NCBI RefSeq assembly: GCF_017406825.1
Contig: NZ_JAFQXT010000051.1
Span: 1-64,000, forward strand
Reading direction: 5' to 3'
From: Methanobrevibacter sp.
GTDB taxonomy: Archaea > Methanobacteriota > Methanobacteria > Methanobacteriales > Methanobacteriaceae
DNA: 64,000 nucleotides
The notes under the pieces are model-generated. The model was given only the letters and a program-made list of their open reading frames with translations, was not told the DNA's origin and did no database searches. This document shows positions 36,231 through 51,262 of this stretch, piece after piece. Every line of letters begins with the position of its first letter. Position 1 is the first letter of the stretch. The position numbers and the translations under genes are program-made.

Positions 36231-36271
36231 TCAATTTTTTAAACTTATTTTTTTAGATATTGGGTGTTAAT

Positions 36272-37201
36272 ATGAAAACACTTGAATGGGAAGATAATAA
36301 ATTAAAACTCATTGATCAAAGAAAGCTTCCTGATGAATTGACCTACGTGTACTGTGAAAATTATCAGGACGTTATTGTTGCAATAAAAAACATGACCGTG
36401 CGTGGCGCACCGGCTATTGGAGTATCGGCAGCTTTTGGAATGGCACTGGCAGACATTGAGGGTGTTGATTTAACTAAAGCCGCAGAAGAGATAAAGGCTG
36501 CAAGGCCAACTGCTGTTAATCTGTTCTGGGCTGTTGACAGAGTGCTTGAAAGTGAAGACGCACTTGCGGAAGCGCTTAAAATGTATGATGAGGACATGGC
36601 TACAAACAGGGCTATCGGAAAATTCGGCGCTGAAATAATAGATGATGGCGATACAGTTCTAACCCACTGTAATGCAGGAGCTCTTGCATGTGTCGATTAT
36701 GGGACTGCTCTTGGAGTATTCAGGGCCGCGCGAGATGCGGGAAAAAACATCAACGTAATCTGCGATGAGACCCGTCCGAGAGGTCAGGGAGCAAGCTTAA
36801 GTGTTTGGGAAATGCAGCAGGAAAACATTCCGGTGAAATTAATCCCTGATGTGGCTTCTGGATATTTGATGTCTCAAGGAAAAATCGATAAGGTGGTCAT
36901 CGGCGCTGACAGAATCGCCAAAGGCGGCGTAGTCAATAAGGTAGGCTCATTTATGGTGGCGCTTGCAGCAAAATACCATGACATACCATTTTATGTGGCG
37001 GCACCCTACTCTACATTTGACAACGAGATTTCCATTTTTGACACAGTTATTGAAGAGAGGGACGGGGATGAAGTGAGATATTATGGCGGTGCAAGAATCT
37101 GTCCTGAAGGAACTGATGTCATCAATCCGGCTTTCGACATAACACCGAAGGAATTGATCACAGGAATCATTACCGAAAAGGGAATTATTGATCCGATTTA
37201 A
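36272..37201 (+). CDS. mtnA: S-methyl-5-thioribose-1-phosphate isomerase (MtnA family)
   Basis: A 309-residue protein of the MtnA/eIF2B-related aldose-ketose isomerase family. Family motifs are MTVRGAPAIGVSAAFGMAL, THCNAGALACVDYGTALG (catalytic Cys), DETRPRGQGA and VIGADRIAKGGVVNKVGS (catalytic Asp). It isomerises methylthioribose-1-phosphate in methionine salvage; in methanogens the same fold may act on 5-deoxyribose phosphates. GGGTG precedes the ATG at 36272, so I reject the in-frame TTG at 36260. Confidence 0.92.
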   Translation: MKTLEWEDNKLKLIDQRKLPDELTYVYCENYQDVIVAIKNMTVRGAPAIGVSAAFGMALADIEGVDLTKAAEEIKAARPTAVNLFWAVDRVLESEDALAEALKMYDEDMATNRAIGKFGAEIIDDGDTVLTHCNAGALACVDYGTALGVFRAARDAGKNINVICDETRPRGQGASLSVWEMQQENIPVKLIPDVASGYLMSQGKIDKVVIGADRIAKGGVVNKVGSFMVALAAKYHDIPFYVAAPYSTFDNEISIFDTVIEERDGDEVRYYGGARICPEGTDVINPAFDITPKELITGIITEKGIIDPI

Positions 37202-37319
37202 TCAATAATTCTTTCTTTAATTCTTAAATGTTCTTATAATTCTTATTTTTTGATATTACTAATGTCAGTAAGTACTTGCATGCAAAAACCTTTATATGGG
37301 CGATATTTGATATAATTAA

Positions 37320-37604
37320 TTGTACTTATATCGAGTACAAAAAATAACTATTCCCCCCCAGTAAAGTAAGGTAGGATTAACCTATGGAACTTTACTTTTT
37401 TTACAGCTAAAAAACGGAGTTTTAAAACTCAAATTGACAGGCTAGGAATAAGGGTGTGTTCTTAGTCTTGAAAATAGTTAACTCCTCAATTCATGGAGGT
37501 TGAGGATTCTTGCTTCATGGACTGTATGCCCTAATGGGCATGGGATTGCCGTGCTATCTCCTCAGTCCCTGAAGTTCAACTATCCATTTTCTAATCATTT
37601 TTTC
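37320..37604 (+). ncRNA. Candidate structured non-coding RNA, class unknown
   Basis: No reading frame fits, but a strong promoter (AACCTTTATATGGG, TATA at 37292-37298) and dense pairing are present. Stems include TTGTACT/AGTACAA (37320-37340), AGTAAAGT/ACTTTACT (37360-37396, then seven T) and CTAGGAA/TTCTTAG (37442-37465, one G-U). A three-way junction is closed by ATAGTT/AACTAT (37474-37583); its branches are TCCTCAA/TTGAGGA (37483-37506) and CTTCATGGACTG/CAGTCCCTGAAG (37513-37574), the latter enclosing ATGCCC/GGGCAT. A T-run at 37599 ends it. It lacks the RNase P and SRP RNA signatures. Confidence 0.65.
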
Positions 37605-37771
37605 ATTATAAAACTATTTAAAGAATGAAATTTAAAGTATTAAATAACATTTTTATGAATTTCTACATATTTCAATCAAAATAAGGTTATTTGAGTTTCA
37701 TTTTTGATTATGATTTACAATATTTTGTAAAACTAGAGATTTAAAATTGTTAATAATCAATGAGGGATTTT

Positions 37772-38098
37772 ATGGAAATTAAAAGTGGAAAAAGTAAAAA
37801 ATATCCTCCTTTAATCAAGGATTTGGTCACTGAACTATTAAAAGATGACTTTGTACATTTCAAAATATTATGTGCAAATGAGGTTCATCATTTCAACAAA
37901 GATGAGGATACAATCATCGAGTTTGAAGAAACCTATGTAAAAGAAACCAGAGATAACGGGGACATGCTTTATATTGCTTATCCGGATATTTTCAGAGTTA
38001 AATTATATAGGGATATGGATCAATATATCGAAGACGAAAAGAAATTTAATGCATTCAATGATGACGACTTATGGACTGGCAACAGAATCCAGTTCTAA
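37772..38098 (+). CDS. Small conserved hypothetical protein
   Basis: A 108-residue soluble protein, rich in Asp, Glu and Lys (EIKSGKSKKYPPLIKDLVTE at the start, DNGDMLYIAYPDIFRVKLY in the middle). No domain is recognised. I place the start at the second ATG (37772), since GAGGGA lies just before it and overlaps the first ATG at 37760. An inverted repeat (TTTACAA-TATT-TTGTAAA, 37714-37731) stands about 40 bases upstream. It follows the candidate ncRNA and is convergent with trm5. Confidence 0.6.
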   Translation: MEIKSGKSKKYPPLIKDLVTELLKDDFVHFKILCANEVHHFNKDEDTIIEFEETYVKETRDNGDMLYIAYPDIFRVKLYRDMDQYIEDEKKFNAFNDDDLWTGNRIQF

Positions 38099-50774: not shown

Positions 50775-50804
50775 ACATTTATATAAGATTAAAATCAAAT
50801 ATAA
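50775..50804 (+). promoter_or_regulatory. Promoter of the SRP RNA gene
   Basis: ACATTTATATAAG at 50776-50788 is a clear archaeal TATA box, about 27 bases before the first base of helix 1 of the SRP RNA. Confidence 0.6.
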
Positions 50805-51066
50805 AGTTGGCTAGACTGGAGGGTTAGGGGTCCTCTGTAAGCACACACCCCCTTTGGTGCAGTCGAAGTTCAAAAGGCGGCTTTTTAAGAGAGTATAAGC
50901 CTAGAAAAACAACATAGAAACCTCGTCCTACAGGATTGGTGGTGGTGAGATTTTTACTGGAGGGTAAAAATTAGTCATCTCTGATACAGGAACGGGTCAG
51001 GCCCGGAAGGGAGCAGCTCTACTGTTAACATGCAATGCTTGTAGAATCCCGGGGTGGAGTTGGCTT
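50805..51066 (+). ncRNA. ffs: Signal recognition particle 7S RNA
   Basis: The archaeal SRP RNA scaffolds SRP19 and SRP54 to target membrane proteins. The universal helix 8 sequence GGTCAGGCCCGGAAGGGAGC is at 50995-51014. The 5' domain, GGAGGGTTAGGGGTCCTCTG near 50817, has the helix 2-3-4 pattern. The ends pair as helix 1: AGTTGGCT at 50805 pairs with AGTTGGCT at 51058 through G-C, A-U and G-U pairs. A T-run at 51065-51070 ends the gene. tRNA-Ser follows about 110 bases on. Confidence 0.95.
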
Positions 51067-51178
51067 TTTTAGATCACTTATATTTTTGAGATTAGTCCAC
51101 TTTTGAACACGCCATTAAAAAAATAATTAACTTTATTAACATGTTTAAACATATTATTTAGTATACTGTTTTTTACTA

Positions 51179-51262
51179 GTCGGGATGGCCCAGCCTGGTA
51201 CGGCGTCGGACTGCTAATCCGATGGTCTTATGACCTCCGGGGTTCAAATCCCCGTCCCGGCG
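51179..51262 (+). tRNA. tRNA-Ser (GCU anticodon)
   Basis: A class II tRNA of 84 bases. The acceptor stem is GTCGGGA with TCCCGGC (one U-G pair), and the D arm contains TGGCCCAGCCTGGTA. The anticodon stem-loop is TCGGA-CTGCTAA-TCCGA with anticodon GCT at 51213-51215, and the variable arm is long (TGGTCTTATGACC). The T arm is CGGGGTTCAAATCCCCG. CCA is not encoded. Linkage to the 7S RNA gene is known in Methanobacteriales. Confidence 0.97.

What the first reader, a model, noticed from the sequence alone, without database searches (positions are those of the whole stretch)
37320..37604. Highly structured intergenic RNA candidate of unknown class
A 560-base gap contains a promoter typical of stable RNA genes, then at least six perfect or near-perfect stems, including a three-way junction closed by ATAGTT/AACTAT with a 12-base branch (CTTCATGGACTG/CAGTCCCTGAAG, one mismatch). 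The stretch is richer in G and C than its flanks, which is a known sign of structured RNA in AT-rich genomes. The first hairpin plus seven T looks like a terminator, so the 5' part could also be an attenuator. I find neither the RNase P helix P4 core, nor SRP helix 8, nor C/D-box sequences.
Basis: partly seen in the sequence, partly recalled or inferred. Interest (0 to 1): 0.75.

Follow-up and report, generated by a model that had tools for sequence, protein, structure and literature searches.

The report
Transposon guide-RNA relic beside small RNA
The folded stretch is two unrelated things side by side: the worn-out end of a jumping gene that once made the guide RNA of a TnpB DNA-cutting enzyme (read from the opposite strand), and a separate short RNA-like unit that occurs three times in this methanogen's genome and whose job is unknown.

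Summary
The stems are real (37320-37610 z = -4.7), but this is not one RNA. The block 37215-37606 is an insertion: most sister genomes have a short, AT-rich mtnA-g112 gap instead. It has two parts.

It is a truncated, tnpB-less relic of an IS200/IS605-type (TnpB) element: the right end plus the omega-RNA scaffold. Copies occur in sister genomes (E to 1.6e-29). The same sequence overlaps or follows intact tnpB genes. The window still encodes 32 codons of the TnpB tail. The minus-strand structure covaries (14 of 28 pairs with two-sided changes, 0/500 shuffles). The window copy is eroded (4 of 28 pairs broken), so it is probably inert.

(A) 37255-37479, plus strand, is a promoter of a genus-wide type (palindromic box + TATA, mostly before secreted-protein genes) followed by a 5' hairpin and AACTATTCCCCCCC. 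Its 5' part recurs only twice more, in tandem elsewhere in the same genome. Rfam has no match. It is a candidate small RNA of unknown function.

The parts
37215..37606 (.). Insertion block relative to sister genomes, between the mtnA-like gene (36260-37201) and the 112-aa gene (37760-38098). Left edge approximate (37215-37255); right edge at 37606/37607.
   Evidence: of the syntenic gaps recovered, most are 64-326 bp and AT-rich and contain only the promoter of the 112-aa gene, homologous to window 37607-37770; none contains this block.
37266..37297 (+). Promoter: inverted-repeat box (AGTAAGTACTTGCA, 37267-37280; genus form TGYAAGTRAGCACTTRCA, left arm degenerate here) plus BRE/TATA AAAAACCTTTATAT (37284-37297)
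   Evidence: same box-TATA arrangement in many sister genomes, mostly before small secreted-protein genes; four copies in the window's own genome.
37312..37407 (+). RNA A, core: inferred transcription start about 37312-37318; hairpin TTGTACTTatatcGAGTACAA (37320-37340); AACTATTCCCCCCC (37346-37359); hairpin 37360-37396 followed by T7 (possible terminator, about 37403)
   Evidence: promoter plus first ~50 nt recur twice in tandem on contig C17 of the same genome; AACTATTCCCCCC exact in all three and in no other of 67 genus genomes after such a promoter.
37408..37479 (+). Possible extension of RNA A: hairpins 37415-37430 and 37436-37467; AATAGTT (37475-37481) can pair with AACTATT (37346-37352)
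   Evidence: thermodynamic folding only; no homologue found (query 52-164 matches nothing).
37474..37606 (-). Truncated tnpB-less IS200/IS605-type relic (PATE-like): omega-RNA scaffold and right end; element right terminus about 37478-37480; left part deleted at 37606
   Evidence: multicopy repeat in sister genomes, homologous to the right end of tnpB genes; R1 match 37474-37593 (-) 104 bits (the window copy was in the training set).
37484..37505 (-). Right-end terminal hairpin (minus strand CCTCAACCTCC..ATTGAGG), helix 4 of the omega-RNA
37525..37541 (-). Omega-RNA helix 3 (ATGCCC/GGGCAT; ATACTC/GAGTAT in relatives: two compensatory changes)
37560..37574 (-). Omega-RNA helix 1 hairpin (CTTCA GGGAC TGAGG), compensatory changes among relatives
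37484..37579 (-). Remnant of the last 32 codons of TnpB
   Evidence: tblastn of L046 TnpB residues 389-420 against L001 1770-1675, 53% identity, E = 4.9e-4
37607..37771 (+). Ancestral host intergenic sequence (promoter of the 112-aa gene); not part of the inserted block

Best explanation
The interval is a composite insertion between two host genes. The 3' half (37474-37606) is a truncated, tnpB-less remnant of an IS200/IS605-superfamily (TnpB/IS1341-type) element lying on the minus strand. It keeps the right end and the omega-RNA scaffold, whose 5' part also encoded the TnpB C-terminus. In an intact element this RNA binds TnpB, and the host sequence just past the right end serves as the guide, so TnpB cuts the empty donor site and helps retain the element (shown or proposed for ISDra2, PMC8612924). 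The 5' half (37255-37479) is a separate plus-strand unit: a box+TATA promoter shared by a genus-wide set of secreted-protein genes drives a short RNA with a 5' hairpin, an unpaired C-rich stretch and a probable U-tract terminator near 37403. My best guess for its action, inferred only, is base-pairing of the C-run with G-rich ribosome-binding regions of mRNAs made under the same box.
For: Relic: blastn of 37310-37610 matches 15 of 61 genomes, in up to nine copies, almost only over 37475-37607. The repeat's right end is homologous to sequence overlapping or just after tnpB stop codons (about 74-84% identity to L046, L048, L035). Repeat loci keep only the last ~30 codons of TnpB, while L010 keeps the full gene; the window keeps 32 codons. 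A 16-sequence alignment has 14 of 28 pairs with compensatory change, covariation 0.371 vs 0.157 +/- 0.014, 0/500 shuffles; pairing is 94% on the minus strand and 86% on the plus. Model R1 finds the RNA in 53 of 67 genus genomes, often abutting TnpB zinc-ribbon hits, including both strong TnpB genes of the window's genome, C29 and C47. Insertion block. RNA A: two tandem paralogues, strong folds (z -5.9, -2.9 and -3.0), box promoter genus-wide.
Against: No transcript data exist for either part. The window omega copy keeps 24 of 28 pairs with two-sided changes, so recent function cannot be excluded. RNA A's sequence is not conserved outside this genome, its window copy scores only 28.5 bits with R3 while chance matches elsewhere reach 35, and the antisense mechanism is untested.
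Confidence: 0.87

Rival explanations
1. One structured plus-strand RNA of about 280 nt (riboswitch, attenuator or stable ncRNA) running from the promoter through the three-way junction.
For: Promoter on the plus strand; whole segment folds well (z -4.66); the 3' half alone folds slightly better on the plus strand (-40.8 vs -38.6 kcal/mol).
Against: Homologues of the 3' half occur without the 5' half in many genomes, and the tnpB genes that carry it read in the opposite direction; G-U pairs across the family show the minus strand is the RNA (94% vs 86% paired); T7 tract at 37396-37402 likely ends transcription early; no Rfam match.
Confidence: 0.06
2. The omega-RNA copy is still functional: transcribed from the minus strand and used in trans by a TnpB (or a domesticated TnpB-like protein) with the flanking sequence of RNA A as guide.
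For: 24 of 28 pairs kept, with compensatory changes relative to relatives; tnpB-less omega copies are common in the genus (roughly 525 RNA matches vs 247 TnpB matches, summed by hand).
Against: Left end lost, right terminus altered (AGTTAAC vs AGTTCAA), four pairs broken; no TnpB in this genome carries a matching right end: its TnpB-linked omega copies score 48-52 bits vs 104.
Confidence: 0.08
3. RNA A is only an orphaned 5' leader (untranslated region) of a lost secreted-protein gene of the box regulon, without function of its own. (This concerns part A only and is compatible with the relic reading of part B.)
For: The same promoter normally precedes secreted-protein genes with hairpin-bearing leaders, one with a TTTCCCCCC run (L060); no secreted-protein reading frame follows at the window locus, the next gene being the conserved 112-aa host gene.
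Against: Three copies in one genome, two in tandem with about 55 nearly identical nucleotides around the C-run hairpin, suggest that something in the RNA is kept.
Confidence: 0.3

Closest known systems
Omega-RNA / right-end RNA (reRNA) of TnpB, IS200/IS605 superfamily (ISDra2 type, PMC8612924)
   Same: Position at and over the 3' end of tnpB, right-end hairpin at the terminus, structured scaffold of about 120 nt, host DNA beyond the end in the place of the guide.
   Different: Here the tnpB gene and left end are missing, and the copy is eroded.
PATEs, palindrome-associated transposable elements derived from IS605-type transposons (Haloquadratum, PMC3119063; Halanaerobium, PMC7290912)
   Same: Transposase-free, multicopy, IS605-type palindromic ends; some PATEs derive from IS605-type transposons by core deletion.
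   Different: The elements here keep the full omega-RNA scaffold and TnpB tail codons; the window copy is further truncated at one end.
C-rich-loop bacterial sRNAs (RsaE-type UCCCC motif; from my own knowledge, not tested)
   Same: Short RNA with hairpins and an unpaired C-run before a terminator-like hairpin (RNA A).
   Different: Archaeal, species-restricted, no target or transcript shown; a resemblance only.

Membership tests
TnpB omega-RNA / IS200-IS605 right end | Homologous to sequence at the 3' end of tnpB genes | tested here: met
TnpB omega-RNA / IS200-IS605 right end | Conserved RNA secondary structure with covariation on the tnpB strand | tested here: met
TnpB omega-RNA / IS200-IS605 right end | Cognate tnpB in cis | tested here: not met
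   only a 32-codon remnant at the window; hence filed as a relic, not an active element
TnpB omega-RNA / IS200-IS605 right end | RNA is transcribed and bound by TnpB | not testable with these tools
   Needs RNA-seq or RNP pull-down
PATE (IS605-derived transposase-free element) | Multicopy, transposase-free, IS605-type subterminal palindromes | tested here: met
   (for the family in sister genomes)
PATE (IS605-derived transposase-free element) | Both ends present (window copy) | tested here: not met
   homology stops at 37606, where host sequence starts; so it is a truncated fragment of one
Rfam families (RNase P, SRP, riboswitches, archaeal sRNAs) | Score above the gathering cut-off | tested here: not met
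Box-promoter ncRNA family of sister species (model R2) | Covariance-model match of RNA A | tested here: not met
   no match at the RNA A locus or in L022; only the promoter architecture is shared

The most novel reading that the evidence does not exclude
RNA A and its two tandem paralogues belong to an undescribed, fast-evolving set of small RNAs in this methanogen genus. They are made from the same palindromic-box promoter as the secreted/surface protein genes and use C-rich (or, in sister species, GGUGGUGAG-loop) elements to control translation of that regulon.
Probability: 0.25. Interest if true: 0.55.

Novelty: new member of a known kind. Interest (0 to 1): 0.3.

Why it matters
It removes a false lead (a 280-nt RNA of unknown class) by showing that its most structured half is a TnpB omega-RNA relic on the other strand. 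It also shows that omega-RNA-bearing, often tnpB-less elements are common in this methanogen genus (53 of 67 genomes have matches), and points to an untested promoter box that joins secreted-protein genes and small noncoding units. If the latter are regulatory RNAs, they would be a handle on gene regulation in these methanogens.

Tried and rejected
Rfam at gathering and at permissive thresholds: nothing. An exact-pattern scan of 84,980 species for promoter plus AACTATTCCCCC gave 16 scattered bacterial and archaeal matches, judged chance. The left end of the element was first placed near 37700; rejected after synteny showed that 37607-37770 is host sequence. A pseudoknot between the helix-1 loop GGAC and GTCC was drawn but competes with helix 2 and was not counted (one search failed on it). 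The CM for the box ncRNA family (R2) does not hit RNA A. CM R3 from the two C17 paralogues: matches outside the genome at 34-35 bits lie in unrelated sequence without the box or C-run and were judged chance. GGGGGA, the complement of the C-run, is not enriched in the window (10 found, 15.4 expected). The three literature searches on this genus turned up no paper that appeared to describe either part, judged from titles and abstract openings.

Full report
Observation. G+C is 0.31 in 37312-37479 and 0.43 in 37480-37605, against 0.24 and 0.17 in the flanks. No Rfam family matches; the SRP RNA lies elsewhere in the window (50804-51118).

The segment is composite. A blastn search of 61 genomes with 37310-37610 gave two unrelated sets of matches: the 3' part (query from about 171, i.e. 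from 37480) in 14 sister genomes, in up to nine copies per genome, and the first ~50 bases in two places on contig C17 of the window's own genome. Comparison of the mtnA - 112-aa-gene neighbourhood in 30 loci shows that where both genes are seen the gap is usually 64-326 bp and AT-rich, holding only the promoter of the 112-aa gene, which corresponds to window 37607-37770. The block from about 37215 to 37606 is therefore inserted DNA, present at this place only in the window's genome among those compared.

Part B, 37474-37606, minus strand. Aligned copies share a sharp end (...GTTGAGGTAGTTCAA) after a terminal hairpin. The same sequence lies at and just past the 3' end of tnpB genes: in L046 and L048 the tnpB stop codon is inside it, and blastn of the repeat gives about 74-84% identity to L046, L048 and L035. 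Searched with TnpB proteins, most repeat loci keep only the last ~30 codons, L010 keeps the whole gene, and the window keeps 32 codons at 53% identity (E = 4.9e-4). The RNA structure read on the minus strand is well supported in 16 sequences: 28 pairs, 94% of cells paired, 14 pairs with two-sided changes, covariation score 0.371 against 0.157 +/- 0.014 in shuffles, and much lower for slid partners. The family's G-U pairs put the RNA on the minus strand (94% paired, against 86% if the plus strand were the RNA). A covariance model (R1) finds the RNA in 53 of 67 genus genomes and, in the window's genome, next to both strong TnpB genes (C29, C47), which is what an omega-RNA / right-end RNA predicts (TnpB-bound right-end RNA: PMC8612924). 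Summing the tables by hand I get about 525 RNA matches against about 247 TnpB zinc-ribbon matches in the same genomes, so many copies lack the gene; G026, 93% complete, has 12 copies and no TnpB match. Such transposase-free IS605-type elements are known as PATEs (PMC3119063, PMC7290912). The window copy has lost its left part (homology ends where host DNA begins, 37606/37607), has an altered terminus, and has 4 of 28 pairs broken, while its two-sided changes suggest that its lineage was under structural constraint. I call it an inert relic; use in trans is not excluded.

The plus-strand 'three-way junction' and '12-base branch' are the antisense image of this RNA: the stems remain complementary on either strand, and the single window copy folds about equally on both (-38.6 and -40.8 kcal/mol).

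Part A, 37255-37479, plus strand. The promoter consists of a palindromic box (genus form TGYAAGTRAGCACTTRCA), BRE/TATA and a start region ATATAATTAATTG. In sister genomes this promoter mostly precedes genes for small secreted proteins; in four genomes it also precedes noncoding units, often in tandem, with a GGTGGTGAG loop and a TCTCCCTTTTT end. In the window's genome I find four such promoters: the window, two in tandem on C17, and one before a secreted-protein gene. The three noncoding ones share the 5' hairpin and AACTATTCCCCCC; the pattern is found in no other of 67 genus genomes. The C17 pair are nearly identical over about 55 nt around a C-run hairpin and fold well (z -5.9 and -2.9). The window copy diverges after the C-run and has its own hairpin followed by T7 (37360-37402), a plausible terminator. 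Folding of 37312-37485 gives z = -3.0. What this RNA does is not shown; pairing of the C-run with G-rich translation-initiation regions is a guess, and the single enrichment test in the window was negative. An orphaned leader without function is a serious rival.

Verdict. The finding's most striking half is an ordinary transposon relic of a known kind on the opposite strand; the other half is a small, species-restricted RNA candidate worth an RNA-seq look.

Noticed in passing
L110 (G077:C35), L111 (G084:C54), L061/L159 (G023:C115), L157 (G005:C166): Noncoding units, often in tandem, behind the box promoter, about 140 nt, with hairpin GAGTTT..AACTC, GATTAACCT, GTGGTGGTGAGAAAACACC, a terminal hairpin and TCTCCCTTTTT; no Rfam match for those scanned.
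   Followed up: partly
Sister genomes, e.g. L059, L064, L066, L070, L073, L103: A genus-wide palindromic promoter box (TGYAAGTRAGCACTTRCA, then CGAAAAnCTTTATATA) stands before many small secreted-protein genes; the regulator is unknown.
   Followed up: partly
G026, G083, G006, G028: Omega-RNA-bearing elements greatly outnumber TnpB genes (12 vs 0, 11 vs 0, 21 vs 2, 16 vs 2), raising the question whether tnpB-less copies use a TnpB in trans.
   Followed up: partly
L064 (G007), minus strand 958-1018, 1863-1937, 2525-2616: Terminal hairpin AAAAGCATG..CATGCTTTT plus C-run/U-run, found by the ncRNA model R2 around box-driven secreted-protein genes, so that end element appears to be shared with mRNAs.
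   Followed up: no
L106 (G014), L107 (G076): A tRNA pair is preceded by a TATA region and 5' hairpin similar to the start of RNA A.
   Followed up: no
L022 613-1197 and 1735-2079 (G000:C17): The two RNA A paralogues lie between a TetR-family regulator gene (Pfam PF00440) and a gene for a small secreted protein without Pfam match.
   Followed up: no
window 50804-51118 and 51179-51262: Archaeal SRP RNA followed by tRNA-Ser(GCT); ordinary.
   Followed up: no
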